Below are positions 1-32,976 of a stretch of 64,000 nt of DNA, piece after piece. The stretch spans positions 1 to 64,000 of the IMG/VR virus record IMGVR_UViG_3300006224_000008; one strand, written 5' to 3'. Below the pieces are notes generated by a model. The model searched no databases. It was not told where the DNA came from and worked only from the letters and a program-made list of their open reading frames with translations. Source of the stretch: a virus. The position numbers and the translations under genes were made by a program. Position 1 is the stretch's first letter, and every line of letters starts with the position of its first letter.

Positions 1-688
1 AGCCGGGACCAGCGGCACTAGCGGAGAAGCTGGAACCAGCGGTACCAGTGGTGCAGCCGGTACTAGCGGCACTTCAGGCGAGTCCGGAACATCTGGTACC
101 TCTGGCACTACCGGTACGTCTGGGACCAGCGGAACGACAGGAACTTCAGGAACATCAGGAACGACGGGGACTTCAGGTACCTCCGGTGAAAGTGGCACAA
201 GTGGTACTTCGGGTACGACGGGCACTTCGGGTACGAGTGGGACAACCGGGACCTCCGGAACCAGCGGAACGAGTGGCACTGCTTCCATGGCACTCACTGA
301 GGCTCCAGCCGACGAGGCTTATACGGGTCTCACGGTTGACCTGACTTGCGGTGAGGCAATCACCGCTGGATACGCGGTCTACTTCAAGTCGGATGGCAAG
401 ATCTGGCATAGCAACGCCGGGGCAATCGCCACGATGCCAGTTATCGGCATTGCGATGTCGGCGGGAACATCGGCTGGCAAAACCACAGTGCTGCTTCACG
501 GCATCTATCGCCATGATGACCTCTTTGCTTGGACGGTCGGAGGTTACATCTACGCTGCCGGAACGGCGGGATTGCTGAGCCAGACACAACCAGCCACCGC
601 AGACGGCGTGGTTCAAGTGGTAGGGATTGCCACGCACGCGGATAGGATGTACGTGAACCCCACGCTTTTGTACTTTACTCATGTCTGA
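1..688 (+). CDS. Collagen-like GTS-repeat tail fibre, 5' partial
   Basis: The reading frame is open from base 2 to the stop at 686-688, and the start lies outside the window. The first ~95 codons encode a Gly-X-Y repeat, mostly GTS with GES, GEA, GAA and GTT variants, rich in Ser and Thr as in phage collagen-like fibre stalks. The last ~133 residues form a different domain with alternating strands ([20 protein letters not shown] through [18 protein letters not shown]). This resembles a beta-rich head domain seen at the end of metagenomic phage fibres and is loosely similar to DUF2190-like barrels. An internal ATG at 287 would give only that domain, but the uninterrupted repeat upstream argues for one protein. 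It is likely a virion fibre or decoration protein. The hydroxylated repeat is a plausible acceptor for the glycosyltransferase encoded at 2346. Confidence 0.8.
2..283 (+). repeat. Collagen-like GTS tripeptide-repeat coding region
   Basis: About 94 consecutive Gly-X-Y triplets encoded in frame, dominated by GTS and broken periodically by GES, GEA or GTT. Thr and Ser codons vary (act, acc, aca, acg; agc, agt, tca, tcg, tcc), so the peptide repeats far more regularly than the DNA does. The repeat continues off the left edge. Confidence 0.85.
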
Positions 689-722: not shown

Positions 723-1136
723 ATGACCTACGAAGAATTCATGGCGACCTTCGCCCAACGCGTTCAGGCGGCTTTGAACAATCTGGCGACGCAACTGCGC
801 GGGGCCGGTGTGATCAACATCACAGTCGAAGAAGTCACCACGGAAGGCGTGAACGATCTACGCTATCGCATTGTGGCGACAAAAGGCAACCGAACGTTCA
901 CGGCGTATCTTGAAGTGACGGCGGCGGGTTTGGACGCGAACGGGCAGATGCTGATCCTCATCACGTTCTGGGTGGACGGGAACGGCAGCCAGATCGCGAC
1001 GAGCTTCACTCCGGGACAGGCGCAAGTCTACAACTCGATCGAAGGATTGGACGCCCTGCTCACGAAGTTGACGGAGTGCGAAGACATCACTCGCGGCGAG
1101 TTGCTCAGTGCGGCTCGCGCTTTTCTGAGAGTCTGA
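723..1136 (+). CDS. Hypothetical virion-associated protein, 137 aa
   Basis: I do not recognise this family. The ATG at 723 is preceded by an SD-like aaagga about ten bases upstream. The N-terminal ~30 residues look amphipathic-helical (MTYEEFMATFAQRVQ), followed by an alternating strand pattern (RYRIVATKGNRTFTAYLEV; MLILITFWVDGNGSQIATS) and a helical C terminus. It lies between two fibre genes in one co-directional run, and the next start follows its stop by one base. A small accessory or chaperone role for a fibre is possible, but nothing in the sequence proves it. Confidence 0.6.
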   Translation: MTYEEFMATFAQRVQAALNNLATQLRGAGVINITVEEVTTEGVNDLRYRIVATKGNRTFTAYLEVTAAGLDANGQMLILITFWVDGNGSQIATSFTPGQAQVYNSIEGLDALLTKLTECEDITRGELLSAARAFLRV

Positions 1137-1137
1137 G

Positions 1138-2349
1138 ATGACGCCGGTTTTCTGTTGCGGGTTCGAGTGTGGACAGATCGGCAGTGTTGGCCAACATTGG
1201 GCAACGTATGCTGGGACACCGACATTTTCCACAAGTACGGTGCGTTCCGGAGCACGGTCGTTGCAACTCGAAGGCGGGGATGGGGTGACTACGGAACTCG
1301 CGTCGGTCACCACACGCGTATCACGATTCTACATCTATTTCTCAACTCTGCCCACCGCTGATTGTATTCTGTTCTATTCTGGTACCGGAACTCAAGGTGT
1401 TTATTTCAAAGCGTCCGATTCCAGCATATATGCCGGAAACAGTTCTGCTGGTTTCCAGTTCGGCGCAACTGGGGTTGCAGTCACGACAGGGCAGTGGTAT
1501 TTGATTGACGTGATAACCAGAGGGTCATCACCAAGAGTTACCTCAGTGAGCGTGAACGGCACCGAGTGCGGAGACAGTACGCACGCTGGGGGAGCGTCAG
1601 CTACGACTACCCTAGTTTGTTATATGAGCGCGGATGGGGTCGCCTACTACGACGATCTTATAACTAGCCACAATGGAGCAGACTACCCCATCGGTCCCGG
1701 TTTCGTGAACCATTTCGTGCCAGTCTCCGACGGTACTCACAATGTCGCCGGGTCAAACGATTTTGAGCGCGGCACAACGGGCGTGGACATCGTAAACGCA
1801 ACGACGGACGCCTACACGCTGGTTGACGACGTGCCTTTACCAAGCGGCACACCGGATGATGATTCGATTGGGATTATCGCGCCACCAAACTCAACTGATT
1901 ACGTGGAATTGCTCTGTGGTCCAGCCCCAGGAATAGCAACGCCAACTACTGGCCCAAGGCTTACGGAGTGGATAACGACCCATCATGAGGGGGGAACGGG
2001 GACCCCTGATTGTTCAGTGGTCATTCGTAAGGCTGGCACTGCTTCCGTCATTGAGATATTCCGTATTTCCAGCGCCGGGGCTACGAGTTACCGATACGCA
2101 AGAACTCCCGCTTCGGCTGAGCCTGGGGGTGTTCCGTGGACTGCCGCCTCATTTTTGGCTGTTCTGGTACGCATTACTTACTGCTCGGATGCTAACCCTG
2201 ACGTTTTTATTGATGCGGTCATGATCGAAGCCGAATTCGCCCCAACGACGAACATCAAGACGTTGCAAGGCGTGACGTGGCCAACCAATGTGAAAACTCT
2301 TAACGGCCTCGTTGTGGCTTCAGTGAAGACGATCCAAGGGACTGCGTGA
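1138..2349 (+). CDS. Fibre/adhesin with LamG-like lectin fold
   Basis: A 403-residue protein. Residues ~1-190 have the pattern of a concanavalin A/LamG-like jelly roll: CGFECGQIG at the start, SGARSLQLEGG, VSRFYIYFSTLP, WYLIDVITRG and YYDDLITS. This fold is common in phage and metagenomic surface-binding proteins. Residues ~200-370 form a second beta-rich domain of unknown family. The last ~33 residues contain three short similar motifs (IKTLQG, VKTLNG, VKTIQG), a tail seen on many environmental phage fibre proteins. It likely acts at the virion surface in carbohydrate binding. The stop overlaps the GTG start of the next gene, suggesting translational coupling to the glycosyltransferase fusion. 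Confidence 0.65.
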   Translation: MTPVFCCGFECGQIGSVGQHWATYAGTPTFSTSTVRSGARSLQLEGGDGVTTELASVTTRVSRFYIYFSTLPTADCILFYSGTGTQGVYFKASDSSIYAGNSSAGFQFGATGVAVTTGQWYLIDVITRGSSPRVTSVSVNGTECGDSTHAGGASATTTLVCYMSADGVAYYDDLITSHNGADYPIGPGFVNHFVPVSDGTHNVAGSNDFERGTTGVDIVNATTDAYTLVDDVPLPSGTPDDDSIGIIAPPNSTDYVELLCGPAPGIATPTTGPRLTEWITTHHEGGTGTPDCSVVIRKAGTASVIEIFRISSAGATSYRYARTPASAEPGGVPWTAASFLAVLVRITYCSDANPDVFIDAVMIEAEFAPTTNIKTLQGVTWPTNVKTLNGLVVASVKTIQGTA

Positions 2350-5300
2350 GCAATTGCATTCAACTCAGTTTCGTAGACGGCCCGAAGGTCGAAGTAACCG
2401 GCGATGTGCCTTCGTCCTACCGGGTCCAGTTCATCGACGACGACACGGGCATCCAACATTACGAAGCCCGGATTGCGACCAACAACTGGTGCGCGGCCAA
2501 TCTCCGATATTTCGTCAACTGGCGGATCAAGGTCGAGGAAAATGGCGCGGAGGTCGTCGAACACGTCTTTCGCCCAAAGCGGACGCGAGTATTCATTCAA
2601 CTGGGCAGCAAATCACTGGGCGACACGGTAGCGTGGATGCCCTTCGTGGACGAATTCCGCAAGCTGCACGAGTGCGAGGTTCACGTGGCCACGCACTGGA
2701 ACAGCATCTTCAATTATCCAGACTTGAAGTTCATCGAGCCCGGCCAGGAACAGCTTGCCGATTACTACGCGGCATACCGCGTCAACGCCTATGACAACGA
2801 TCTCCGTCGCAATAAAAACAACTGGCGGCTGGTGCCTTTGCAGCAAGTCGCCGCCGACTATCTGGACATCGAATGCCTTCCACATCCGGCACGGCTAAAA
2901 TGTTCAACGGATGGTAGGCCCATGCACGAGCGTTACGCTGTGCTTTCCGAGTTCAGCACTTTCTACGGGAAACAGTGGAATCATCCCGGGGGATGGGACC
3001 GTGTCGTCGATTGGCTGCGCGGCATCGGTTACACCGTCTGTTCGGTGAGCAAGGAACCTACGGCGCTGAAGGATGTCGTCGCCTGGAACAACCGGCCTAT
3101 AATCGAGACTCTTCGCAACATCCAACACGCTGACCTTTGCGTTACGGTGAGCAACGGAATTGCGTGGCTGGCGTGGTCCCTGGGCGTGCCGACGGTCGTC
3201 ATCAGCGGCATGACAGATCCCTTTGTCGAAATGCCCGACTGCATTCGTGTCCACAACCCGGACATCTGCCATGGTTGCTACGGCGACGTGCGGTATCCCA
3301 TCGACCGCGGCAACTGGCTTTGGTGTCCGCGCTCGAAAAAATTCGAATGCTCACGCGGCATCACGCCGGAACAGGTCATTGCGGCCATCGATCCGCACAT
3401 TGATCGGAGCCTGGATGCCATTGCTCTACGCTGCGGAACAGACAAGGCGAGTACCCACCACAACTACTGCTTCCGATATGAGGGATTGTTCGCGGCATTC
3501 AAGGACCGACCCATTCGGCTCCTGGAGATTGGTGTAGACAAAGGCGCTTCGATTCGCACATGGCTGGAGTACCTGCCGCAAGCTGAGGTTTGGGGACTCG
3601 ACGTTGACGACTGCCAGTTCACTCATCCGCGCTTTCACTTCGTTAAAGGCGACCAGACAAACCCCGAACTGCTGGAGAGCCTTGGCGTGTTTGATGTCGT
3701 CATTGACGATGGGTCTCATCGCGCCGACGCGATCAAAGCGACCCTGGATATTCTGTTCCCGAAAACGCGGGAATTGTACGTCATCGAAGACGCGTTCGCC
3801 GTCTGGCATCCCGCCTTTGCTGGAGACAGCCCATTCCCTGACCTCGTGCGCAACTCCGCCACGGGCGCTATCGGCTCCGTCGCGTTCCAGCACGGTCTCT
3901 GCCTCATTCGGCCGCAGACAACAAATGCTTCGCCGAGATTTTCGCTTATCATGCCAACCAAGGATCGACCGGAGATGATCCAGCGCGCCGTGGCCAGCGT
4001 GATTGGGCAGGACTTCGCTGACTGGGAACTAATCATCAAAGATGGCGGCGAGAGTGTCCAAGACCTGCTGCCGGACGATCCCCGAATCCGCTATGAACAT
4101 TGCGATGGAGGTCCGTTCGAACGTTTCAATCGCGGCATGGCCGAGGCTCGCGGCGAAATCCTGAATTTCTGCGCCGATGACGACATTCTTTTCCCCGGTG
4201 CCTTGCGTCAGGTGCATGACCATATTGGCGCCGCCATGTGGTGCTACGGCGTGATCCGGCGCACCGACACAAAAGCAATTCAAGGTGAGGCGTGGGACCC
4301 CAAGAAACATGCGACACTGAACATTGTGCCGACCCCGGGGTTCTTCTGGCGCAAAGCGGCCTATGAACGCATCGGAGGATGGGATCCAAAACTCGTCTGC
4401 GCCGATTGGGACTACTCGCATCGGCTGGCGGCGCGCTGGGAGCCGGTGTTCATCCCGTACATCATGGCGACCTACACGGTTCACGACGGCCAGGATACAT
4501 GGCATCGCCAGGAGGCCATGCAGCGCGATGTGGTCAAAATCGTGCGGCGCGCCCAGGAAGGTCACTATCGGTCAAACCGGGTTCTCTTCATTGCGCCGCA
4601 TCTCTCAACTGGCGGCATGCCGCAGTACCTCCTCCGCAGAATCGAGGACATGGGCGGAAAAGCCAAAGTCAAAGTCATCGAGTGGAACAATATCAGCGAC
4701 GAATACACCGTACAGAAGAAGGCGATCCGGTCCCTTTGCGACATTACCACGCTGAACGGCGACAAAGCGGCGTCACTCAGGAAGGAAGTTGAAGACTGGG
4801 GTCCCTCGGTTGTGCATCTGCAAGAGTTCCCGGAGCTTTTCATGGGCTATTTGCCAGTCGAATGGCTTTATCGCAAGGATCGTCCTTACCGAATCATCGA
4901 GACCGGGCACAGCACGCGACTGCGCGTAGACCAGAAGAAAACGAGACCGGACGAGTTTGAGTTTGTCGGCGACTGGCACGCAAAGGAGTTCCAGAGCTAC
5001 GGCGTGCCGTTCCACATCGCTCGATACCCGGTGAGGCAGCGCAAGCGGCCAGAGAGATCGCAAGCACTTGGCAGGCTCGGTCTCAAACCAACTATGGGTC
5101 ATGTGCTCCAGGTTGGTCTCTTCGCGCCGTGGAAGAACCAAGCGTTCACAGTCAGGGTAGCCGCGTTGCTTCCAGAAGTGGCATTCCACTTCGTTGGGAA
5201 TATGGCTGAGAACTTTGCGGATTACTGGCGACCTCTGACCGATAGCCTGCCCGCCAATTGCTGGGTCTGGGGCGAGCGCGCCGATGTTGACGCCTTCTAC

Positions 5301-5522
5301 GCAGCGCTTGACGTGCTTCTTTTTCCAAGCACAGAAGAGTGCAGTCCACTCGTTCCAAAGGAGGCGATGGAGTGGGGAATGCCAGTCGTCATGCGTGACC
5401 TAGATACTTATTGCGGTGAATTCGACGGCAAAGTACACTACGCGACCAGCGTAGAAGAAGCAGCGACGCGTATCGTGGGGCTGATCGGCACTCCGCCTGT
5501 GAGCGCGCCAACAAAAGGCTAG
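2346..5522 (+). CDS. Four-domain TibC-like heptosyltransferase/methyltransferase/GT2/GT4 fusion
   Basis: A 1,058-residue protein starting at a GTG that overlaps the upstream stop (GTGA). Residues ~1-350 match the autotransporter strand-loop-strand O-heptosyltransferase family (TibC/Aah): SLGDTVAWMPFVDEF, WNHPGGW, SNGIAWLAWSLGVPTVVISG, then the iron-site cysteines C308, C311, C327 and C335. Residues ~355-525 form a class I SAM methyltransferase (LLEIGVDKGASI, VVIDDGSH). Residues ~530-745 form a GT-A family 2 glycosyltransferase (SLIMPTKDRPEMIQRA, Asp triplet at 611-613, ERIGGWDP). Residues ~746-1050 form a GT-B family 4-like glycosyltransferase (IAPHLSTGGMPQYL, LFPSTEECSPLVPKEAMEWG). TibC enzymes put heptose on Ser in beta-helix repeats. 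The inferred role is to build and methylate a glycan on phage fibres in the host cytoplasm. The order of catalysis and the sugar donors are unknown. Confidence 0.85.
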   Translation: MSNCIQLSFVDGPKVEVTGDVPSSYRVQFIDDDTGIQHYEARIATNNWCAANLRYFVNWRIKVEENGAEVVEHVFRPKRTRVFIQLGSKSLGDTVAWMPFVDEFRKLHECEVHVATHWNSIFNYPDLKFIEPGQEQLADYYAAYRVNAYDNDLRRNKNNWRLVPLQQVAADYLDIECLPHPARLKCSTDGRPMHERYAVLSEFSTFYGKQWNHPGGWDRVVDWLRGIGYTVCSVSKEPTALKDVVAWNNRPIIETLRNIQHADLCVTVSNGIAWLAWSLGVPTVVISGMTDPFVEMPDCIRVHNPDICHGCYGDVRYPIDRGNWLWCPRSKKFECSRGITPEQVIAAIDPHIDRSLDAIALRCGTDKASTHHNYCFRYEGLFAAFKDRPIRLLEIGVDKGASIRTWLEYLPQAEVWGLDVDDCQFTHPRFHFVKGDQTNPELLESLGVFDVVIDDGSHRADAIKATLDILFPKTRELYVIEDAFAVWHPAFAGDSPFPDLVRNSATGAIGSVAFQHGLCLIRPQTTNASPRFSLIMPTKDRPEMIQRAVASVIGQDFADWELIIKDGGESVQDLLPDDPRIRYEHCDGGPFERFNRGMAEARGEILNFCADDDILFPGALRQVHDHIGAAMWCYGVIRRTDTKAIQGEAWDPKKHATLNIVPTPGFFWRKAAYERIGGWDPKLVCADWDYSHRLAARWEPVFIPYIMATYTVHDGQDTWHRQEAMQRDVVKIVRRAQEGHYRSNRVLFIAPHLSTGGMPQYLLRRIEDMGGKAKVKVIEWNNISDEYTVQKKAIRSLCDITTLNGDKAASLRKEVEDWGPSVVHLQEFPELFMGYLPVEWLYRKDRPYRIIETGHSTRLRVDQKKTRPDEFEFVGDWHAKEFQSYGVPFHIARYPVRQRKRPERSQALGRLGLKPTMGHVLQVGLFAPWKNQAFTVRVAALLPEVAFHFVGNMAENFADYWRPLTDSLPANCWVWGERADVDAFYAALDVLLFPSTEECSPLVPKEAMEWGMPVVMRDLDTYCGEFDGKVHYATSVEEAATRIVGLIGTPPVSAPTKG

Positions 5523-24268: not shown

Positions 24269-25216
24269 CTACCCCTTATCGCCGGGCAGTGGAATATCAA
24301 AACGTCGGACGTACTCCATGAAATCAATCTGGAAAATCGACGCGTTGCGCGTTCGTTCATACTCAACCAGATACCAGTTCTCCTTGATCATCTCCGTTGC
24401 CCTGATGCACTCCGTATGGTCGTAGACCAGTCGCATTCGGGCAATCAAGGTCTCCGCCAGATCAGGCGCCAGCAGTGTGTGACAGGCGAACATCTTGTTG
24501 TACAACGTGTACCCGGCTCGCACCGTAAACCCCTGTTTTTCGCCGGGACTCCAGAACCGGTGCCCAATGGCGATGTCCTCAAGCATCTGGATTTTGCCAC
24601 CGGCGAGGTAAGTCTTGATGGAGATCATGGCTTCATCGCAGCCCCAGTACCGGAGGAAGCGCAGGGGGGAGATAAGGTCGAACCACGATTTTGCAATCAA
24701 GTAGCCTGCCCCCATCAGACACGGGACCGATCCGCCTTCGAATGTGGATGGCCTTTTGCTCCAGTTGACCTCGAACACCTGTTTCTGCTTTGGGTGTACA
24801 GGGTCTGGGCCATACAGGTTCAAGGTCGCGCCGTAGCGATACACCGCCTTGGCGCTGGCCAGGGTCGGATGGAACTTGTCCAGGGCAGCGCACGCGCAGC
24901 AGTAGACCGTCTCGTGCGGTTGGCCGCTGAGCATGGGCAGAAGTCGATCATACCATCCGGCCGGGAACCGCATGTGCCCGTCCACCAAGAGAATCCAGGG
25001 CCTTTTGGCGTAGAGAACGCCGATATTCCGCGACGGGCCGCAGCCGCACCGGAACCGATTGTGCACAACGCCGGTCGCGCCTTTTACATGGACTTTCGTC
25101 GAACTGCAATCGTCCACCACGATGATTTCAACATGGTCCCCGGCAGTCTCCCGAATCGAATCGACCGTATTCTGAAGGTCGGGCTCGTTGACGGCGGCAA
25201 TGATGATCGAGATCAT
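24269..25216 (-). CDS. Glycosyltransferase family 2, GalNAc-transferase-like
   Basis: A 315-residue GT-A enzyme. It opens with the nucleotide-binding strand MISIIIAAVN and has IIVVDDCSS. LLVDGHMRFPAGW places a DGH metal motif at D79-H81, as in the DxH of polypeptide GalNAc transferases rather than DxD. WGCDEAMISIKTYLAGGKI and a following IGHRFW resemble the acceptor and metal-His segment of that group. It starts by ATGA overlap with the gene to its right, within a glycan operon. The predicted reaction is transfer of a sugar from a nucleotide donor; the substrate is unknown. Confidence 0.8.
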   Translation of the reverse strand: MISIIIAAVNEPDLQNTVDSIRETAGDHVEIIVVDDCSSTKVHVKGATGVVHNRFRCGCGPSRNIGVLYAKRPWILLVDGHMRFPAGWYDRLLPMLSGQPHETVYCCACAALDKFHPTLASAKAVYRYGATLNLYGPDPVHPKQKQVFEVNWSKRPSTFEGGSVPCLMGAGYLIAKSWFDLISPLRFLRYWGCDEAMISIKTYLAGGKIQMLEDIAIGHRFWSPGEKQGFTVRAGYTLYNKMFACHTLLAPDLAETLIARMRLVYDHTECIRATEMIKENWYLVEYERTRNASIFQIDFMEYVRRFDIPLPGDKG

Positions 25217-26019
25217 AATTTGGTCACCATTGCGCGCTCATCTGCCCAATGGAAAAACGGCTGAAGCCTAGTCGGCCATGGCCCCTGGTATGCCTGTAAA
25301 CGTTCCCAGCGCTTCACAGCGTCCGCGTACCCGTAGTATTGTTCCTTCTGCTCCACTTGCCAGCGGAACGCATAGCTGTAGTGGTCGAACCCAATGCCCC
25401 ACTGCGCGCAGAAGTCTCTCTCCGCGCACTTCTCCTTCGGCCCGTTCGCGCCCGTCAGGAAAGGAGGTTCGTGTGACGTGAAGGTCATCCCTGGTTCGTA
25501 CCGCCATGCCCTGAGCCACTCCCCCGGATTTGCCCCGTAGCAGTTCCTGCCAACCGTGATCAGGCGCGGGCCAACGAAGAATCGGCAATGGAATCTGGCG
25601 CACGTGTAGCCTTCAGCCGGGTCGGAGAGCATCGCACAGACCGCCTCGATGTTGCCCGGCATCCAGATTTCGTCCGCGTCAATCTGCATCAGGATGCAGG
25701 GTTCCTTCAGGCGCCTCAGAACGCAATTATACATCGACACTTTGCCGGGCCAAAGCGCCTGGGTTGTGTGATGAACGCGCCGGTGGGATTTTGCTAGACC
25801 AGCCAGGAACTCAGTGGTGCCATCCACACTCAACCGCGGCTTTGGCTTCTGGCACCAAGCGGTGCACTTCACGTTATCAGCGGCGCCCTCAACGATCCAC
25901 CAGTGCCAATCGACCTCTGGCGGCAAAGCGTTGAAGCAAAACAACTGCGCCGGGAGAAACGGCATTGCATCGAGTGCAATCGTAATTATGTTCAAATTCA
26001 TACTCTGGTGGCCCAGCAT
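25213..26019 (-). CDS. GT-A type glycosyltransferase
   Basis: A 268-residue protein with the GT2-like core: NIITIALDAMPFLPAQL at the N terminus and LMQIDADEIWMPGNIEAV holding a DxD motif (D114-D116). Further conserved-looking parts are the aromatic FDHYSYAFRWQVEQKE. It may start at the second Met (26001), which leaves less overlap with the next gene to the right. The stop overlaps the start of the family 2 enzyme. Part of the glycan operon. Confidence 0.7.
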   Translation of the reverse strand: MLGHQSMNLNIITIALDAMPFLPAQLFCFNALPPEVDWHWWIVEGAADNVKCTAWCQKPKPRLSVDGTTEFLAGLAKSHRRVHHTTQALWPGKVSMYNCVLRRLKEPCILMQIDADEIWMPGNIEAVCAMLSDPAEGYTCARFHCRFFVGPRLITVGRNCYGANPGEWLRAWRYEPGMTFTSHEPPFLTGANGPKEKCAERDFCAQWGIGFDHYSYAFRWQVEQKEQYYGYADAVKRWERLQAYQGPWPTRLQPFFHWADERAMVTKL

Positions 26020-26534
26020 TGAAACGATGTCTTCTGCGCCTCCGGCAGCAGCTCATCGACAGCCTGTTTGACCCCTGGGTACGTGTCACCGTAATCGTGC
26101 CCCGCCAGGAACCCTCCGGGCCGGATCTTTGGCTTCCAACAGCGGATGTCATCCTTCACGGAAGCGTAATCATGGGCAGCGTCGATAAAAACAGCGCCCA
26201 GTCCATTCTGCACCAAACGTGCCGCTGTGACTGAGGAGCACCGCAGCGGAATGACAAGGTCATCCAGTTTCATCTCGTGGACGTTGGCTGAGAAGGTACC
26301 AAACGGATTTACCACCGTAAGGCCATCGTCGCGCTCATAAATGTCTGGCCACAGGTCAACACAGAGGAGTTTTATATCTTTGCCGGACGCACGGATTCTT
26401 TCACCAAGATAGCAGGCCGATTTTCCAAGGTAAGAACCGACCTCTACGATGTTGTCGCCGGGCGCGAGCAGTTCGACGAACTTATCGTACACGTCCGGGA
26501 AGTCGAAGAAGCCATCGATGTCTGCCCATGTCAT
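25998..26534 (-). CDS. Class I SAM-dependent methyltransferase
   Basis: A 178-residue protein with motif I IVEVGSYLGKSA, the acidic end of strand 2 (LLCVDLWPD), and AVFIDAAHDYASV, typical of the Methyltransf_24/CmcI-like group often found with glycosyltransferases. GGFLAGHDYGDTYPGVKQAV near the end is also characteristic. It is predicted to methylate a sugar of the glycan built by its neighbours. The acceptor is not known. Confidence 0.8.
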   Translation of the reverse strand: MTWADIDGFFDFPDVYDKFVELLAPGDNIVEVGSYLGKSACYLGERIRASGKDIKLLCVDLWPDIYERDDGLTVVNPFGTFSANVHEMKLDDLVIPLRCSSVTAARLVQNGLGAVFIDAAHDYASVKDDIRCWKPKIRPGGFLAGHDYGDTYPGVKQAVDELLPEAQKTSFQCWATRV

Positions 26535-26547
26535 ATTGCGATTTTGG

Positions 26548-27264
26548 TTAATGGTTCGAGAAGACCGCCACGTTGTTCGGCATCCCTTCGAGCGTGATCA
26601 GGTCGTGCGTCCTCAGGTCAATCAGTTCGGCGGGAGTGAGTTTTTGCAGATAGAACACTTCGTCCGTCAGTCGGTACGGCCGATCACGGTCATAACCAAA
26701 ACTGTATTCGGCATAGTCCTCCGGATTCATCGACATCATCCGCGCTATTTTCAGTTCGGGAACGCGACTGGGAACCGTCTCCGGCCCTTGCAGCAGGTAC
26801 GAGTAGACGAACTGGGGGATAAACTTATGGCGTACGAGAAAGATCGTGGTCGAACAATTGAATACCTTGTTCCGCCCGAAGATGGCGTTCTTGTTTCCCA
26901 TCTCGCGGTACATCCGATCCACAAAAGGTCCAAACACCAGCGCATCCTGCTCTACATAGAGAAAATCCATCTCGTTGGCATAGGCAATCCAAAGCCCAAT
27001 CATCCACATAGTCGCGCACCCAGACATAACGATCCCCGGTTTGCTGCCGTTCAGCAAGGAGCCCGATCCGCCAAGATTGCCGCTCAGGCAGATCCATTCG
27101 CCCTGACCGGCTGTTGCCACGCAATCGGCTGAAGCGATAATGAAGACGCGACGTGGTTGGGCATGACGCAGGTTTGTTCTCCACCACAGTCGGTGGAACC
27201 AGTCGGCACCCCTGCCGGTCTGCGAGTGATACCCAGAGACAATGATGTAGTGAGGGGTGGTCAT
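26548..27264 (-). CDS. Putative GT-A glycosyltransferase
   Basis: A 238-residue protein of uncertain family. MDFLYVEQDALVFGPFVDRM has the spacing of a DxD-type donor/metal site (E105-Q-D107) at the end of a hydrophobic strand, as in sugar transferases of the LPS/capsule type. NCSTTIFLVRHKFIPQFV and RLTDEVFYLQKL fit an acceptor-side region. It starts by ATGA overlap with the next gene to the right. Function is inferred mainly from the operon. Confidence 0.55.
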   Translation of the reverse strand: MTTPHYIIVSGYHSQTGRGADWFHRLWWRTNLRHAQPRRVFIIASADCVATAGQGEWICLSGNLGGSGSLLNGSKPGIVMSGCATMWMIGLWIAYANEMDFLYVEQDALVFGPFVDRMYREMGNKNAIFGRNKVFNCSTTIFLVRHKFIPQFVYSYLLQGPETVPSRVPELKIARMMSMNPEDYAEYSFGYDRDRPYRLTDEVFYLQKLTPAELIDLRTHDLITLEGMPNNVAVFSNH

Positions 27265-28040
27265 ACGAAAAACTCTCTCATCTGGCTGCGTTCAAGGAAC
27301 CAGTATTCGGCGTTCTTAAATGGTCCCCAGCAATGCAAGGTGTTGGCCTTGATCTTCTGCTTGGTATTGCGCAGCACGAAATGCGGGTACCCGGCAATCC
27401 ACTCAATTCGTTTGCCAAGGTCGCCCATGACGAAACGGCCATCGTGGATTAACAGGTGATGGTCGAAAACGGTCCCGTCCTTAACCTCGAAGGTGTTTCC
27501 GACATTAAACCCGTGCAGCCCGGCAAGCTGAGTCCAGAACGTCATGTCGCTTACGGTCTCAACCGGTTGGTTCGCGAGGTCTACGCCGAGCAGACTCTCG
27601 ACGAAGCCGCAGAACGCCGTCAAAGGTTCGCGCCGACTGATGTAGTAAGGTGCCGTGCGAGCCTCGCCCATGAACGAGACCGAGAAATCGAACTGTGCGA
27701 ACGGCTCGAATGCCTTTTCAAGATTGCCGAACACCATGAAATCCGTGTCGGCGGTGAAGATTGGAAAATCCAGGGAGGTTGCTTCAGCGTATTCGTAAAT
27801 CGCGAACCATCGTGCGAGCGCGGGAGCGTGCAGGGTGCGAAATGGATCATGTAACAATTGATGGGAAATCCGTTCCAAAACGGCATTGCTCTTTCGGAGT
27901 TCGGCGATGTGCGTAAAAGACCCTATGTTGTAATCGTGTTCGCCCAGGACGTGGATAGGACAGCCGCAGTGGGCTTGCGCACACTGCAAAGCAGAGAGCA
28001 GGCCGTCGTATTTTCCCCAACTCGTGAATATCAGGTGCAT
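27261..28040 (-). CDS. Putative GT-A glycosyltransferase with DTD motif
   Basis: The longest frame extends to 28253 but overlaps the next gene by 209 bases. The first Met clear of that gene is at 28040 and begins on a core strand (MHLIFTSWGKYDGLLSAL). Mets at 28055 and 28064 are alternatives, and no SD decides. The 259-residue product has FPIFTADTDFMVFGNLEKAF with a DxD motif at the end of a strand, then SVSFMGEARTAPYY. The family is not recognised with certainty. The ATGA-linked operon of sugar enzymes supports a glycosyltransferase role. Confidence 0.55.
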   Translation of the reverse strand: MHLIFTSWGKYDGLLSALQCAQAHCGCPIHVLGEHDYNIGSFTHIAELRKSNAVLERISHQLLHDPFRTLHAPALARWFAIYEYAEATSLDFPIFTADTDFMVFGNLEKAFEPFAQFDFSVSFMGEARTAPYYISRREPLTAFCGFVESLLGVDLANQPVETVSDMTFWTQLAGLHGFNVGNTFEVKDGTVFDHHLLIHDGRFVMGDLGKRIEWIAGYPHFVLRNTKQKIKANTLHCWGPFKNAEYWFLERSQMREFFV

Positions 28041-28044
28041 AAAG

Positions 28045-28755
28045 TCATGGGCCATGGATTCCATCAGCGCGCCGTTCAAGGTCAAGTTTCTCTTCCGGAG
28101 ACGCTTCACGGTAAATGTCGCAGTGCCGGTCCCAAAGGATGCAGTTGGACTGGTCGCCACGTCGGAAGATGTTGTCCGGTTTGCGCCATTTGGAAATACT
28201 GTAAAAGCCGTCCCAGGTAACCAGTTTGCACGTTCCACCGTGCGTCTCGACAAGCACCGAGAACGCCTGTTCGAACTCGGAGCAATCCAGGTGCGTATTG
28301 ACCTTCTTGGGCCATAAGGATAGCAACGCCGGTGAGCACGCGATGCAGGAGGTCCTCAGGTGCGGCGTGTTCTCGTAGGAAGCCATCGGGCCGTACAATC
28401 CGGGTCCGTACAATGCCCATGCCAGCGCCAGTCGTTCGAGCCACCCTTCCCGCCAGAAGTAAACTGGCGTCGCCATGAACACCGCCATGTCGCAGTCCAA
28501 CCATCTAGCGATTTTCTGGTAGGTGCCGCAGTCCCAACCTGCCCCTTCATTCTTGATCGTGGCATTGCCAAAATACGGCGGCAGGATGGAAACGCCAATA
28601 CCGCAATTGACCACGTAAAGTTCGTGCCTTATAGTCGGAAAGAACCGGCGGTAAGTCTCCATGAAGCGTAGTTCTAACGGATGATAGAACTCCGAGTCCG
28701 GAGCGTCCGGTGTCGCCTTGCCGATGACGTTCAGGTAAACAAGCGCGATTTTCAT
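28045..28755 (-). CDS. Putative glycosyltransferase, rhamnan-synthesis-like
   Basis: A 236-residue protein starting MKIALVYLNVIG. NEGAGWDCGTYQKIARWLD resembles the N.G.D.G.YQ segment of rhamnan synthesis F and related transferases. AVFMATPVYFWREGWLERLA follows at the position of the metal/donor site. The C terminus is charged. It shares the operon with two methyltransferases and the other transferases. Family assignment is tentative. Confidence 0.5.
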   Translation of the reverse strand: MKIALVYLNVIGKATPDAPDSEFYHPLELRFMETYRRFFPTIRHELYVVNCGIGVSILPPYFGNATIKNEGAGWDCGTYQKIARWLDCDMAVFMATPVYFWREGWLERLALAWALYGPGLYGPMASYENTPHLRTSCIACSPALLSLWPKKVNTHLDCSEFEQAFSVLVETHGGTCKLVTWDGFYSISKWRKPDNIFRRGDQSNCILWDRHCDIYREASPEEKLDLERRADGIHGP

Positions 28756-28759
28756 GCGG

Positions 28760-29263
28760 CTATGTTTTTTTGAAGGCTATCATTCCGTCGCGTTTCTCCG
28801 CGAGTTCATGGGGCAGGCCGTCGAAGAATGATTTTGGTTCCGGGTAATCCGAGTGATTGTAATCGTGAAACGCCAGGATTCCCCCAATGCTGACGTGAGG
28901 CCACATTACCTCGTAACACCTGACCGTGGTGTCAAGCCTGTGATTGTGATCGATAAATGCGAAAGCAATCGGACCATGGGGCCAAGTTTTGAGCGTATCC
29001 ATGATGTCACCCTTAACCGTATCCACCAACACTCCTTTCCCGATGAAAGGTGAGACGTTCTCCTTCCACTCGTCGAATGCATGGAAGAGGTCCAGGCAAT
29101 GCACTGCCTTCTGGGTAGTGTTCGCGGCCAGGATCGTCGCGGTGGACAGGCCAAGATGGCAACCGACCTCCAATAGGCATCCCGGGACTGTTAAAACCGA
29201 TTGTACCAGCCGCGTCAGCGACTGCGCATCGGCTTCACAGATGAGGCCGGGTATGTCTAACAT
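28760..29263 (-). CDS. Class I SAM-dependent methyltransferase
   Basis: The start was set at the ATG at 29263 because a strong SD (ggaaggag) lies five bases upstream; a longer frame to 29284 lacks this. The 167-residue product has LLEVGCHLGLSTATILAAN as motif I, VHCLDLFHAFDEW, then FAFIDHNHRLD and GGILAFHDYNHSDYPEPK, the pattern of small Methyltransf_24-type enzymes. It overlaps the end of the epimerase gene by seven bases. Likely methylates a sugar or a sugar precursor. Confidence 0.8.
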   Translation of the reverse strand: MLDIPGLICEADAQSLTRLVQSVLTVPGCLLEVGCHLGLSTATILAANTTQKAVHCLDLFHAFDEWKENVSPFIGKGVLVDTVKGDIMDTLKTWPHGPIAFAFIDHNHRLDTTVRCYEVMWPHVSIGGILAFHDYNHSDYPEPKSFFDGLPHELAEKRDGMIAFKKT

Positions 29264-30183
29264 CCGTACTCCTTCCGCATCCACGCCGCGGTCTTAGCCA
29301 TTCCCTCCTCCAGGCTCACAGTGACCTTGTGATCGAGATCCTGCACTGCAAGTGAAGTATCGGCCTGTTTGCGAGCTGCCGTCATGGCCTCCGGCAGGTC
29401 GCGGAAAAAGACCGGCACACTGACGCCCATGGCGACCTGGGCTGCTTCAGCCAGTTCCTCGATGTTGTGCTCCTTATCGCCCGCGATGTTGTAGACCGCC
29501 CAGGGCTTGAAATTGTCGATGATATTAGCCAGCGTCCGGACACAGTCCGAGACGTAGGTGGAGGTCCGCTTATGGCCTCTGTACACGGTCAATGGAAGTC
29601 CCGTCATTGCGCGGTACAGGAACTGGCAGTTGACTGACCGATAGGGACTGTAGTGTTCCCCCGGCCCATAGGTGTTAAAAAGCCTCACGACGACAATCTC
29701 GGAGCCATACATCCCCGCGTTCGCGCATTGCTGCTCATTGACCCACTTTGTCATGGCGTAGTCGTTGAGCAGGCGCGCCGGAACGAGATGCTCCTGAAGC
29801 GTTCCAGACGTGTCCCCGTAGACCTCCGATGAAGAAAAGTGAATCAACTGGAACGATTCGCGCTGTGCGAACCTGAGAATGTGCTTTGTCCCGATGCAGT
29901 TAGTCCGCCACAGATTCTCGTAGAAGTCTTCGCCGTTCCAGCGCCCGAATTCTGCGGCCAAGTGGTAAACAAAATCCGGTTTACTCCAGCCAACGACCCG
30001 CTCGACGTGACGGTAATCACCAACGTCGCACCGCATGTAATGCCCAGCCGTTGGGAAATGGTCGCCAGTTTCGTCTTCATTGTGGGAAATGTCGCAGCCA
30101 AAAACTTCGTGGCCGCGCTGCTCCAACTCGGGCACTAGGGCGCTCCCGATGGTTCCAAGTGATCCGGTAACGAGTATTCTCAT
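29257..30183 (-). CDS. NAD-dependent nucleotide-sugar epimerase/dehydratase (extended SDR)
   Basis: A 308-residue extended short-chain dehydrogenase/reductase. The Rossmann motif TGSLGTIG lies at residues 6-13, HLAAEFGRWNG follows, the catalytic Ser region SSSEVYG lies at 117-123, and the YxxxK pair is Y142/K146. VVRLFNTYGPGEHYSPY and a HKRTSTYVSDCV segment match nucleotide-sugar 4-epimerases and 4,6-dehydratases. It likely supplies or converts a UDP-, GDP- or dTDP-sugar for the transferases. Which sugar cannot be told. It begins by ATGA overlap with the next gene. Confidence 0.85.
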   Translation of the reverse strand: MRILVTGSLGTIGSALVPELEQRGHEVFGCDISHNEDETGDHFPTAGHYMRCDVGDYRHVERVVGWSKPDFVYHLAAEFGRWNGEDFYENLWRTNCIGTKHILRFAQRESFQLIHFSSSEVYGDTSGTLQEHLVPARLLNDYAMTKWVNEQQCANAGMYGSEIVVVRLFNTYGPGEHYSPYRSVNCQFLYRAMTGLPLTVYRGHKRTSTYVSDCVRTLANIIDNFKPWAVYNIAGDKEHNIEELAEAAQVAMGVSVPVFFRDLPEAMTAARKQADTSLAVQDLDHKVTVSLEEGMAKTAAWMRKEYGC

Positions 30184-30653
30184 GTGATAGTGACCTCCAG
30201 AACGTTGCTCAGGTAAGAAGTGTGCGGCAGCAAAGTGCGGAAGTGCCGCTGGTGCTTAACGCGTTTCAAAAGCGGCTGCCAGTAGTCCCTCTCCGTGTCG
30301 TGTGCGACGATGCAGCAAGGTTTGTTCAGAAACATCTCCGCGCAGGCCACGCGGTCTTGTCCGAGATAACAGTCAATGAAAACGACGTCCCAATCGTCTT
30401 TGACCATCGCTGCCGCCCCAGCGACCATGTTGGACACGAGCCGCAGCTTATTGCCCGCGACTGGCCAGAGTGTCTCAACCCATGACCTGTCGGTCTCCAG
30501 CGTTACCACTGATGGGGAAATCGCGTGGAGCAGAGGAGTCGAGTAACCACCGGCACCAAGTTCAAGTACGCGAGGCCCAAACTTCATTACGGCCAGAGCC
30601 AATGCTGGCATGTGCGACGCGCAGGCTTCGCAAATGGTGAGGGATGTGTTCAA
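30180..30653 (-). CDS. SAM-methyltransferase-like protein
   Basis: A 157-residue protein. RVLELGAGGYSTPLLHAI is a methyltransferase motif I, VVTLETDRSWVE is the acidic strand 2, and DVVFIDCYLGQDR stands at motif IV. The family resembles short Rossmann methyltransferases in sugar loci. It is shorter than many active enzymes, so a degenerate or accessory role is possible. Start and stop are ATGA-linked to both neighbours. Confidence 0.65.
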   Translation of the reverse strand: MNTSLTICEACASHMPALALAVMKFGPRVLELGAGGYSTPLLHAISPSVVTLETDRSWVETLWPVAGNKLRLVSNMVAGAAAMVKDDWDVVFIDCYLGQDRVACAEMFLNKPCCIVAHDTERDYWQPLLKRVKHQRHFRTLLPHTSYLSNVLEVTIT

Positions 30654-31345
30654 GGGACCTTCCTCCGGATTAAGGGCTGCATGCGTCTGACTTCATCGAC
30701 ACGCACCTGTAAAGGCAGGCTCGGCCAATGACAGACGAAATCGCCGGGCATCCACTGGCCCCGGTGACCGAAGTAGTCCAGTCCCTTTCGGGGCTCATTT
30801 CTGGTCGGATACATTTTAGCGAAGAAATGGTACTCATAGGAGTTGAGCATCCACTGGGGCAGGATTTTCACGGTGCCTTGGTAGTTCCCAAGCGTGTCAA
30901 TCATGGCGGCATTTTCGACCCATCTGTTGTCCTTGTACTTCGGATACAGGGCGAGCAGATCGTTCAGCCAGCCGATCCCCTGTGGCGTCGCCCGGACAAG
31001 AAACGAATCGGCCTGGATCGGCGCGCACCAATCGGCCGCCGCGACAACGTGGCAGTCGTCGTAGGTTCGGTCCTCCAGCCGAATGCCAAAGTTGGTAATG
31101 AGAACATCGGCCCCGGAGCACCACGCCCAATCCCACTCGCCGGAAACCAGGAGGTCCCGCAGAAACTTCAGCCGGTCCCAGGAAACCGGATGTGCAGCGG
31201 GCATCGCCCAGCCATCGGTCTTAACCTTCAGCGTGTATCCGTGCGCGGCGCAGTATTCCGCCCGATTCCCGTAAATCGTCAGCTTCGCCAACGCTGCGAA
31301 CGATGGCAGATGCGCTGCAACACAGACAATTCGTTGACTGGTCAT
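30650..31345 (-). CDS. GT34-like galactosyl/mannosyl transferase
   Basis: A 231-residue protein. LTIYGNRAEYCAAHGYTLKV, then SWDRLKFLRDLL and DWAWCSGADVLITNFGIRLE, match the order seen in the GMA12/MNN10 (GT34) family: the N..YC..HGY motif, an acceptor/lid helix and a metal-binding Asp segment. GHRGQWMPGDFVCHWPSLPL near the end is also typical. The usual DxD appears here as GAD (G78-D80), a deviation worth noting. Operon-linked by ATGA. Confidence 0.7.
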   Translation of the reverse strand: MTSQRIVCVAAHLPSFAALAKLTIYGNRAEYCAAHGYTLKVKTDGWAMPAAHPVSWDRLKFLRDLLVSGEWDWAWCSGADVLITNFGIRLEDRTYDDCHVVAAADWCAPIQADSFLVRATPQGIGWLNDLLALYPKYKDNRWVENAAMIDTLGNYQGTVKILPQWMLNSYEYHFFAKMYPTRNEPRKGLDYFGHRGQWMPGDFVCHWPSLPLQVRVDEVRRMQPLIRRKVP

Positions 31346-31866
31346 GTTGGGGTCGAGGTATTCTGAGTAACAGAGTCGGAGGGGGTCCCAACTACAGCCT
31401 CAACCCTAACAAAGTCGAGCGGGACCTCATAGAATTCTCGTTCGCGGTGTTTCGCGGTATCCAGTTTTCTCACGCGGACCCAGTGTTTGAAGGTCGAACA
31501 ATAGACCACGAATGCGACGGTCATCTCTCGATTGAGGATGATGTACGCGTAGGGTTTTGGTCTGGCCCGGTCATAGGCGTGACAGACGTCTACAATGAGG
31601 GTCCTAAAAGGAAAATCCTCCTTGCAGGTGAAGGTTAGACGGGGCCGGTGCTTTACCTCTACGCGTTGCATGATCTCCAGGTCGCCACTATCCCCATACT
31701 CCCCCATCTGAGCGACATCTGGCCGTTCGAAAGTTGGCCGGATGACCACCGGGTACCCGCGGTCGGAGAGCCATGCCGCAGCGACGCGAACTGCAATCTT
31801 GCTCGCTCGAAGGTCCGAAATAAAGTTTGGATCATCCGCGTAATTGCTTATCAGTGGTAACTGCAT
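31342..31866 (-). CDS. PD-(D/E)XK nuclease-fold-like phage protein
   Basis: A 174-residue protein. GDSGDLEIMQRVEVKHRP contains D62 and the ExK pair E70/K72 in the spacing of a PD-(D/E)XK core, followed by a strand (LTFTCKEDFPFRTLIVDV) and a helix. The last ~20 residues are disordered-looking. Whether it is an active nuclease, a resolvase or just the fold is unknown. It lies at the right of the sugar-transferase run, by ATGA overlap. Confidence 0.45.
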   Translation of the reverse strand: MQLPLISNYADDPNFISDLRASKIAVRVAAAWLSDRGYPVVIRPTFERPDVAQMGEYGDSGDLEIMQRVEVKHRPRLTFTCKEDFPFRTLIVDVCHAYDRARPKPYAYIILNREMTVAFVVYCSTFKHWVRVRKLDTAKHREREFYEVPLDFVRVEAVVGTPSDSVTQNTSTPT

Positions 31867-31903
31867 TAGTGGACCGCGTGGGATTGTCGAATGCGCAGAG
31901 GCT

Positions 31904-32140
31904 TCACGACTGGTTAGCGGAATTGGACGGAGTCGGTGGATTCAGGGCGTCGTTGATCAGCTTAGCGACCTCGTCTTTGCTGCCCTGGACAGTGCGTTCG
32001 GTTCCATCGCGCATGCCGATGAGACAACGGTCTCCGTAGGTGGTGTCATCATCATAGATGCTGCTGATTTGGGTGGGGTCAACCCAGATGGTCCGACCGC
32101 GATACACGTGGTCATTTGGCTGTGTGAATTTGAGTAGCAT
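31904..32140 (-). CDS. Small beta-barrel protein, FlbD-like
   Basis: A 78-residue protein with SD aaggaaa nine bases before the ATG. MLLKFTQPNDHVYRGRTIWV, then QISSIYDDD, CLIGMRDGTERTVQGS and a final helix match the shape of FlbD-like small phage proteins (strand, I..I, strand, DG, strand, helix). No function is known. A 37-base gap separates it from the nuclease-like gene. Confidence 0.55.
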   Translation of the reverse strand: MLLKFTQPNDHVYRGRTIWVDPTQISSIYDDDTTYGDRCLIGMRDGTERTVQGSKDEVAKLINDALNPPTPSNSANQS

Positions 32141-32152
32141 AGTTGTGTTTCC

Positions 32153-32404
32153 TTATTTCAGAAGTGCCAGCAGTTCCAAGAGTTGTGGTAATTCTGTGAC
32201 AGGTTTTATGTCCTTTGGATTGTCCGAAAATCCATCGCAGAAATCCAACCACACGGGGTCGAAATTTAACGGCCACATGAACCATCCATGCTCGATGCCG
32301 TGGCGACTGCCCGTCACGTTCGCCGCGTGATTGTTGCACCTTGAGTGAGCATCGCCAGGAATGTCTAAGCGGTGAACGCACCTATAGCAGATGATATCTT
32401 TCAT
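32153..32404 (-). CDS. Small Cys/Trp-rich phage protein
   Basis: An 83-residue protein with a strong SD (aaggag) three bases before the ATG, itself lying in the end of the upstream gene. CYRCVHRLDIPGDAHSRCNN and GWFMWPLNFDPVWLDFCDGF are typical of a small conserved phage protein with a C..C...H..C zinc-binding-like cluster. Function is unknown. Confidence 0.6.
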   Translation of the reverse strand: MKDIICYRCVHRLDIPGDAHSRCNNHAANVTGSRHGIEHGWFMWPLNFDPVWLDFCDGFSDNPKDIKPVTELPQLLELLALLK

Positions 32405-32976
32405 GTCTCCTTAACAAAAAGTAACTGGTATCCCTCCGCGACAAGCTTCCAGCCGCGTCCCAACAGGAACAACTTTGACAGGGCGGTCTTGCCGCCGTGA
32501 GGGGGGAAACAATCATCCATGAGGATCGCGCACGGCCTCCGCAGCAGGCAATAGACAGCCCCCACTTCCGCCAACTGATGCAACTGCGAGGGAAGCCAGT
32601 TGCCCTCTTCGTAGTCGTAAGAATCCAGGTAAACGAAATCGATATGGTCAAGGCATCTAACCGTTTCGACGCTGTCTCCGGGAACCAGCCAGACATCCTT
32701 GTCTCTCGCCAGTCCAAACTTCGCGAGATGCGTAACCGCCTGTTCAATGTGGTTCGGGTTCAATTCAAAGCTGCTGAACTTCGCGCCGATGTGCCGTGCC
32801 AGTTTCGCCAGGATGATCGTGCTTTGGCCATCCTGCGGAATGCCCCGGTAACAGCCGGTCTCGGCCAGATACTTGCATTCGTTGGCCATAATCCACTCAG
32901 CGGCAGCGCGGAAAGTCTTTGCCCGAAGCCCGCCCGCCAACTGCTCGATCTCTTTCAGCAAGGGTTCGTCGATCAT
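32401..32976 (-). CDS. SAM-methyltransferase-like protein
   Basis: The start was set at the ATG at 32976 (ATGA overlap with the next gene), although the frame is open to 33216. The 191-residue product has YLAETGCYRGIPQDGQSTI as a glycine-rich motif I, FSSFELNPNHIEQAVTHLAK as strand 2, and HIDFVYLDSYDYEEGNW at motif IV. It resembles Rossmann methyltransferases but the glycine-rich loop is unusual. The end contains DDCFPPHGGKTALSKLFLLG. A role in glycan modification is inferred from the operon. Confidence 0.6.
   Translation of the reverse strand: MIDEPLLKEIEQLAGGLRAKTFRAAAEWIMANECKYLAETGCYRGIPQDGQSTIILAKLARHIGAKFSSFELNPNHIEQAVTHLAKFGLARDKDVWLVPGDSVETVRCLDHIDFVYLDSYDYEEGNWLPSQLHQLAEVGAVYCLLRRPCAILMDDCFPPHGGKTALSKLFLLGRGWKLVAEGYQLLFVKET

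What the first reader, a model, noticed from the sequence alone, without database searches (positions are those of the whole stretch)
2346..5522. Four enzymes fused in one phage protein
Heptosyltransferase, SAM methyltransferase, GT2 and GT4 domains lie in one 1,058-residue frame without stops. Fusing two or more sugar enzymes is known, but this order with TibC at the front is not one I recognise and could act as an assembly line for a capped glycan.
Basis: partly seen in the sequence, partly recalled or inferred. Interest (0 to 1): 0.75.

Follow-up and report, generated by a model that had tools for sequence, protein, structure and literature searches.

The report
Phage four-enzyme fusion beside threonine-serine fibre
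A bacteriophage carries one protein made of four sugar-handling enzymes, and comparisons across many environmental phages suggest that enzymes of this set exist to decorate an unusual collagen-like tail fibre built of Gly-Thr-Ser repeats that is encoded close by.

Summary
The ORF is real: 2346-5522 (+), 1,058 aa, GTG start overlapping the stop of the gene before. Its domains are TibC/Aah-family O-heptosyltransferase (TIGR04414, above cutoff), macrocin-type O-methyltransferase (MycE/TylE-like), GT2 and GT4. Catalytic motifs of all four are intact. A second IMG/VR contig carries the same ORF, which argues against an assembly join.

The exact order is unique among 109 clusters of phage TibC proteins sampled here. 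TibC fusions as such are common, however, and the same enzyme types recur in permuted orders.

The larger finding lies just upstream and off the window's edge: a tail-fibre-like protein with 177 Gly-Thr-Ser triplets, whose C-terminal end is window 2-688. Gly-Thr-Ser collagen is specifically linked to TibC: 41/79 TibC loci hold such a protein versus 1/79 and 1/80 control loci. Conversely, 25/65 records with the repeat encode TibC versus 1/59 with other collagen repeats. The same GT4 family has TibC nearby in 75/80 loci.

Best reading: TibC starts an O-glycan on Thr/Ser of the fibre, GT2 and GT4 extend it, the methyltransferase caps it. Enzyme identity is shown; the acceptor is inferred from linkage. 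Heptose is uncertain: TibC's adenine-contacting Arg286 is Thr here.

The parts
2346..5522 (+). 1,058-aa four-enzyme fusion TibC-MT-GT2-GT4 (GTG start)
   Evidence: identical in a second contig
2355..3389 (+). TibC/Aah-family protein O-heptosyltransferase domain (residues 4-348); D93=TibC D110, T205, K209, W274, four Fe-finger Cys 308/311/327/335 kept; R286 equivalent is T255
   Evidence: TIGR04414 9e-73; PDB 4rap 2e-41; model matches 4rap/4rb4 E 1e-27, TMt 0.83-0.85; residue counts in 82 sequences
3411..3881 (+). macrocin-type (MycE/TylE-like) O-methyltransferase domain (residues 356-512), DDGSH 454-458 and IED 480-482
   Evidence: PDB 8ia9, 3ssm; phrog_21658; motifs
3933..4550 (+). GT2 glycosyltransferase domain (about residues 530-735), DDD at 611-613
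   Evidence: PF00535 1.3e-11
4572..5495 (+). GT4 glycosyltransferase domain of the 'PHLSTGG' phage family (about residues 743-1050), EX7E at 998-1006
   Evidence: PF13692 2.2e-11; A2 family
2..688 (+). C-terminal 228 aa of the Gly-Thr-Ser collagen-like tail fibre (proposed acceptor); the full 1,168-aa gene is L001:837-4343 in contig IMGVR_UViG_3300033414_000076
   Evidence: 177 of 271 Gly-X-Y triplets are GTS with all synonymous codons used; N-terminus matches tail-fibre families
723..1136 (+). 137-aa protein of unknown function between fibre and fusion
   Evidence: no family
1138..2349 (+). 403-aa protein, looks like a virion or lectin-like protein by eye; its stop overlaps the GTG start of the fusion (GTGA), suggesting translational coupling
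   Evidence: no Pfam/PHROG/NCBIfam match
24269..35306 (-). second glycan gene cluster: two GT2, TylF/Methyltransf_24 methyltransferase, NAD-dependent epimerase/dehydratase, GT34-like, methyltransferase-like ORF, and a 777-aa GT2-GT9 fusion; may supply or extend sugars (inference)

Best explanation
The protein is a phage-encoded, fused protein-O-glycosylation line for the phage's own tail fibre. Proposed steps: (1) the TibC domain, of a protein O-glycosyltransferase family, puts the first sugar on Thr or Ser of Gly-Thr-Ser triplets in the collagen-like fibre encoded just upstream; (2) the GT4 and GT2 domains add further sugars; (3) the macrocin-type methyltransferase O-methylates a sugar and so caps the glycan. 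Fusion keeps intermediates on one enzyme and fixes the enzyme ratio. Shown here: the four domains with intact catalytic motifs, the adjacent Thr/Ser-rich fibre, and a strong, specific linkage of TibC with Gly-Thr-Ser collagen and with this GT4 across phages. Inferred: the acceptor, the order of steps, the sugars, and the use (fibre stiffness or protease resistance, host adsorption, masking). The donor is a heptose only by family analogy.
For: Domains. D110, K230, W305 and all four iron-finger cysteines of TibC invariant in 82/82 phage TibC domains (residue roles from PMC4358343). Upstream protein: 177 GTS triplets, 45% Thr+Ser, all 4/4/6 synonymous Gly/Thr/Ser codons used, so the peptide and not the DNA is conserved, with a tail-fibre N-terminus. 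Linkage: a GTSG-repeat ORF in 41/79 TibC loci vs 1/79 control loci (p=2e-14) and 1/80 loci of a phage methyltransferase family, that one also holding TibC (p=8e-15). Reciprocal: TibC in 17/37 and 8/28 GTS-repeat records vs 1/45 (32 of them with other collagen repeats) and 0/27 other-collagen records (pooled 25/65 vs 1/59, p=1e-7; in contigs of 60 kb or more 16/20 vs 0/15). Microcystis phage Mel-JY01: a GT4-x-MT-TibC fusion flanked on both sides by GTSG proteins. GT4 family: 75/80 loci hold TibC. L369: GTSG ORF directly followed by a TibC-GT4 fusion. In bacteria, TibC-family genes likewise sit beside their acceptor, the AIDA-I gene.
Against: No biochemical or mass-spectrometric data. TibC Arg286, which contacts adenine of ADP-heptose, is Thr here and varies in the phage family, so donor and sugar are open. 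About half of TibC loci show no GTSG ORF; many are truncated, but some with full 10-kb flanks also lack it. The one TibC-bearing record among controls (G077) has no GTS collagen in the 15 kb examined. TibC itself acts on a beta-helical autotransporter, not on collagen. Domains MT and GT2 were not modelled with confidence.
Confidence: 0.62

Rival explanations
1. The fusion modifies a host surface glycan (LPS, O-chain or capsule) to block superinfection, the role usually given to glycosyltransferases in phage host-recognition regions.
For: Published reading for pelagimyophage glycosyltransferases (PMC7029224); GT9 fold is shared with LPS heptosyltransferases; a second glycan cluster with an epimerase exists.
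Against: The first domain belongs to the protein-O-glycosyltransferase family with its iron finger, not to WaaC/WaaF; the link is specific to GTS-collagen records, not to collagen fibres or glycan enzymes in general.
Confidence: 0.15
2. The fusion glycosylates another virion protein, for instance the 403-aa protein whose stop overlaps its start, or the capsid, as reported for mycobacteriophage Che8 capsids.
For: GTGA overlap of the two genes; phage virion glycosylation is reported (PMC11256854 citing Freeman 2023); many TibC loci show no GTSG ORF.
Against: The 403-aa protein has no family match; the feature that co-occurs with TibC across phages is the GTS repeat.
Confidence: 0.13
3. TibC and GTS fibres merely share the hypervariable host-recognition region of related phages; linkage reflects shared ancestry and gene location, not function.
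For: Loci were not corrected for phylogeny; some are near-identical contigs.
Against: Other collagen-like fibres and another phage sugar-enzyme family do not show the link; fusion orders and TibC domains are diverse (109 clusters); phages range from 73-kb to 735-kb records.
Confidence: 0.1

Closest known systems
TibC / Aah bacterial autotransporter heptosyltransferases (BAHT, TIGR04414; PDB 4rap, 4rb4)
   Same: Whole domain, catalytic Asp, Lys, Trp and four iron-binding Cys; gene placed close to its (proposed) acceptor gene
   Different: Encoded by phage, fused to MT, GT2 and GT4; no autotransporter or strand-loop-strand match in the proteins scanned; Arg286 replaced; proposed acceptor is collagen-like
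MycE / TylE macrocin-type O-methyltransferases (PDB 3ssm, 8ia9)
   Same: Matched region with DDGSH and ED motifs (the type that methylates deoxysugars on a macrolide)
   Different: Only about 155 residues matched, inside a glycosyltransferase fusion; substrate unknown
Chlorovirus PBCV-1 A111/114R (three glycosyltransferase functions in one protein)
   Same: Virus-encoded multi-domain protein for glycan synthesis (cited in PMC9614988)
   Different: Eukaryotic virus, N-glycan, other enzyme set
Mimivirus L230 with collagen-like proteins; Bacillus BclA collagen-like glycoprotein
   Same: Glycosylated collagen-like surface proteins (PMC9614988)
   Different: L230 acts on hydroxylysine; no TibC enzyme
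Mycobacteriophage Che8-type virion glycosylation
   Same: Phage-encoded glycosyltransferases thought to modify the phage's own virion (PMC11256854)
   Different: Capsid target, no GTS collagen; TibC not reported

Membership tests
BAHT / TIGR04414 O-heptosyltransferase | Curated model above cutoff over the full length | tested here: met
   245.4 bits vs cutoff 200, residues 4-348
BAHT / TIGR04414 O-heptosyltransferase | Catalytic Asp110, sugar/phosphate residues Thr226, Lys230, Trp305 | tested here: met
   D93, T205, K209, W274 (roles from PMC4358343)
BAHT / TIGR04414 O-heptosyltransferase | Iron finger of four cysteines | tested here: met
   C308, C311, C327, C335; 82/82 phage sequences
BAHT / TIGR04414 O-heptosyltransferase | Arg286 contacting adenine of ADP-heptose | tested here: not met
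   T255; R in 33 of 82 phage domains. Membership in the sequence family stands; the heptose claim does not follow
BAHT / TIGR04414 O-heptosyltransferase | Autotransporter strand-loop-strand acceptor nearby | tested here: not met
   No autotransporter match among about 27 other proteins of this phage scanned with Pfam, 10 of them also with NCBIfam; GTS collagen fibre instead. The rest of the genome was not scanned
BAHT / TIGR04414 O-heptosyltransferase | Dodecameric ring | not testable with these tools
   needs biochemistry or a complex structure
Macrocin-type O-methyltransferase | Sequence match with DDGSH and ED metal/catalytic motifs | tested here: met
   the role of the motifs is recalled for MycE, not tested
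GT2 | Family match and DXD-type motif | tested here: met
GT4 | Family match and EX7E motif | tested here: met
Virion glycosylation system of a phage | Glycan on a virion protein | not testable with these tools
   needs mass spectrometry

The most novel reading that the evidence does not exclude
Many environmental phages, from about 70 kb to over 700 kb, carry a dedicated O-glycosylation module (TibC-family enzyme plus a 'PHLSTGG' GT4, often fused, often with methyltransferases) whose substrate is a class of collagen-like tail fibres made of Gly-Thr-Ser triplets; the triplet is the recognition code, and the four-enzyme protein of this window is its most condensed form.
Probability: 0.55. Interest if true: 0.85.

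Novelty: new variant of a known kind. Interest (0 to 1): 0.72.

Why it matters
Glycosyltransferase genes are frequent in environmental phage genomes and are usually read as DNA- or LPS-modifying genes. If TibC modules glycosylate Gly-Thr-Ser fibres, a large class of phage 'auxiliary' genes gets a defined substrate, phage collagen-like fibres become glycoproteins, and a cultured phage (Microcystis phage Mel-JY01) offers a direct test. Single-chain multi-enzyme glycosylation would also be a useful tool for making defined glycopeptides.

Tried and rejected
Assembly join or frameshift: rejected. DNA-modifying glycosyltransferase: no support; the TibC family acts on protein. General linkage of sugar enzymes or of any collagen fibre: not supported by controls. 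A second GTS-pattern scan with AGY serine codons and a fixed spacing returned nothing, so the replicate used loci left over from the first scans. A bacterial genome scan with the whole protein found only a GT2 relative. The model is good for TibC and GT4 only. Literature searches for GTSGTSG, TibC or strand-loop-strand in phages found no paper on this link in the open-access library.

Full report
Observation. The frame at 2346-5522 is open for 1,058 codons and its GTG start overlaps the stop of the preceding gene. Family and sequence searches place four enzymes in it: TibC/Aah O-heptosyltransferase at 4-348 (TIGR04414, 9e-73, above cutoff), a macrocin-type O-methyltransferase at 356-512, a GT2 at about 530-735 and a GT4 at about 743-1050. 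Motifs expected for activity are present in each. An IMG/VR contig with different ends repeats the region at 100% identity, so a join is unlikely, though independence of the samples is unknown. The AlphaFold model is confident for the TibC and GT4 parts and its TibC part matches 4rap/4rb4 (TMt 0.83-0.85); MT and GT2 had no alignment depth.

Relatives. A TibC alignment finds at least 546 relatives in viral contigs, the best 80 kept. In 109 clusters of TibC domains, 62 carry an extension of more than 120 aa, and only the window's phage has TibC-MT-GT2-GT4. Others hold overlapping sets in other orders: GT4-MT-x-TibC (L011, L014, L019), MT-GT4-MT-x-TibC (L012, L025), FkbM-GT4-GT2-x-TibC (L021), FkbM-GT2-x-TibC-GT4 (L374), MT-GT4-TibC-FkbM (L457), GT4-TibC-MT (L523), TibC-GT4 (L369), and in the cultured Microcystis phage Mel-JY01 GT4-x-MT-TibC. 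Not all these GT4 and MT domains are of the window's own subfamilies. The window's protein can be read as a TibC-GT4 fusion with MT and GT2 set between; this is inference. The window's GT4 family taken on its own has TibC within about 10 kb in 75 of 80 loci.

The neighbour. The second contig runs on upstream of the window's first base. There lies a 1,168-aa gene with a tail-fibre N-terminal domain and 271 Gly-X-Y triplets, 177 of them Gly-Thr-Ser, written with all synonymous codons in near-equal use. The window's record begins inside this repeat; bases 2-688 of the window encode its end. Mel-JY01 has such proteins on both sides of its fusion, and L369 has one immediately before its TibC-GT4 gene.

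Test of linkage. An ORF with at least five GTSG occurs in 41 of 79 TibC loci, in 1 of 79 control loci fetched with the flipped codon pattern GSTGSTG, and in 1 of 80 loci of a phage methyltransferase family, that one also with TibC. Control loci are somewhat shorter on average (8.3 and 10.8 kb). In the other direction, whole records with at least 15 GTSG were searched for TibC: 17 of 37, against 1 of 45 controls, 32 of which do encode collagen-like repeats with GPT, GAT or GST triplets. A second batch gave 8 of 28 against 0 of 27 collagen-like controls. Pooled, 25/65 against 1/59 (p=1e-7); in contigs of 60 kb or more, 16/20 against 0/15. Records were not corrected for relatedness, and the p-values treat them as independent.

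Mechanism. In TibC, Asp110 is the candidate base, Thr226 and Lys230 hold the phosphate, Trp305 the heptose, Arg286 the adenine, and four cysteines an iron (PMC4358343). In 82 phage domains Asp110, Lys230, Trp305 and the cysteines never vary; Arg286 is Arg in 33 and Thr in 23, the window included. So the enzyme class (protein O-glycosyltransferase) is well supported and the sugar is not. The best reading is initiation on Thr/Ser of the GTS repeats, extension by GT4/GT2 and capping by O-methylation. The recurrence of methyltransferases in TibC fusions supports a methylated product.

Comparison. In bacteria the family modifies AIDA-I-type autotransporters encoded next door (one search shows the pair on plasmids). 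No autotransporter match was found in the phage proteins scanned. Phage virion glycosylation and virus collagen glycosylation are each known in other settings, and pelagimyophage glycosyltransferases have been read as LPS-modifying. No paper in the searched library connects TibC, phages and Gly-Thr-Ser collagen; most subscription journals and preprints were not covered, so novelty of the link is provisional.

Verdict. The single protein is an unusual arrangement of known enzyme families. Its main interest is the lead it gives to a widespread TibC plus GTS-fibre module in phages, which is directly testable in a cultured phage.

Noticed in passing
window 24269-35306 (-): Second glycan cluster of about a dozen genes including GT2s, a TylF-like methyltransferase, an epimerase/dehydratase, a GT34-like protein and a 777-aa GT2-GT9 fusion.
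   Followed up: partly
window 8955-21587 (+): Single 4,210-aa ORF; no PHROG match; contains by eye an ADP-ribosyltransferase-like stretch and Pro-rich linkers; looks like a giant internal virion protein.
   Followed up: no
window 36074-40030 (-): 1,318-aa protein combining VWA, F5/8 type C, P-domain and a C-terminal calcineurin-like phosphoesterase; next gene (40037-41719) carries DUF5977 repeats.
   Followed up: no
L001:456-836 and L001:837-4343: Two consecutive collagen-like genes with different repeat types (GPAGPAGP then GTSGTSG) upstream of the window.
   Followed up: partly
L005:635-3052: In the GenBank record of Microcystis phage Mel-JY01 the GTSG-repeat gene seems to be annotated on the wrong strand (CDS 739-2298 minus) and only its end is called on the plus strand.
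   Followed up: no
L457:2775-3704, L523:1135-2088, L070:6414-7382, L050 and L059 ORFs: Many TibC loci hold further weak TibC-like ORFs or domains beside the main one, perhaps diverged sister glycosyltransferases.
   Followed up: no
L059, L386, L395: Some TibC/GT4 loci without GTSG carry other Gly-X-Y repeats such as GTN/GSS or GAQ/GAK, possible alternative acceptors.
   Followed up: no
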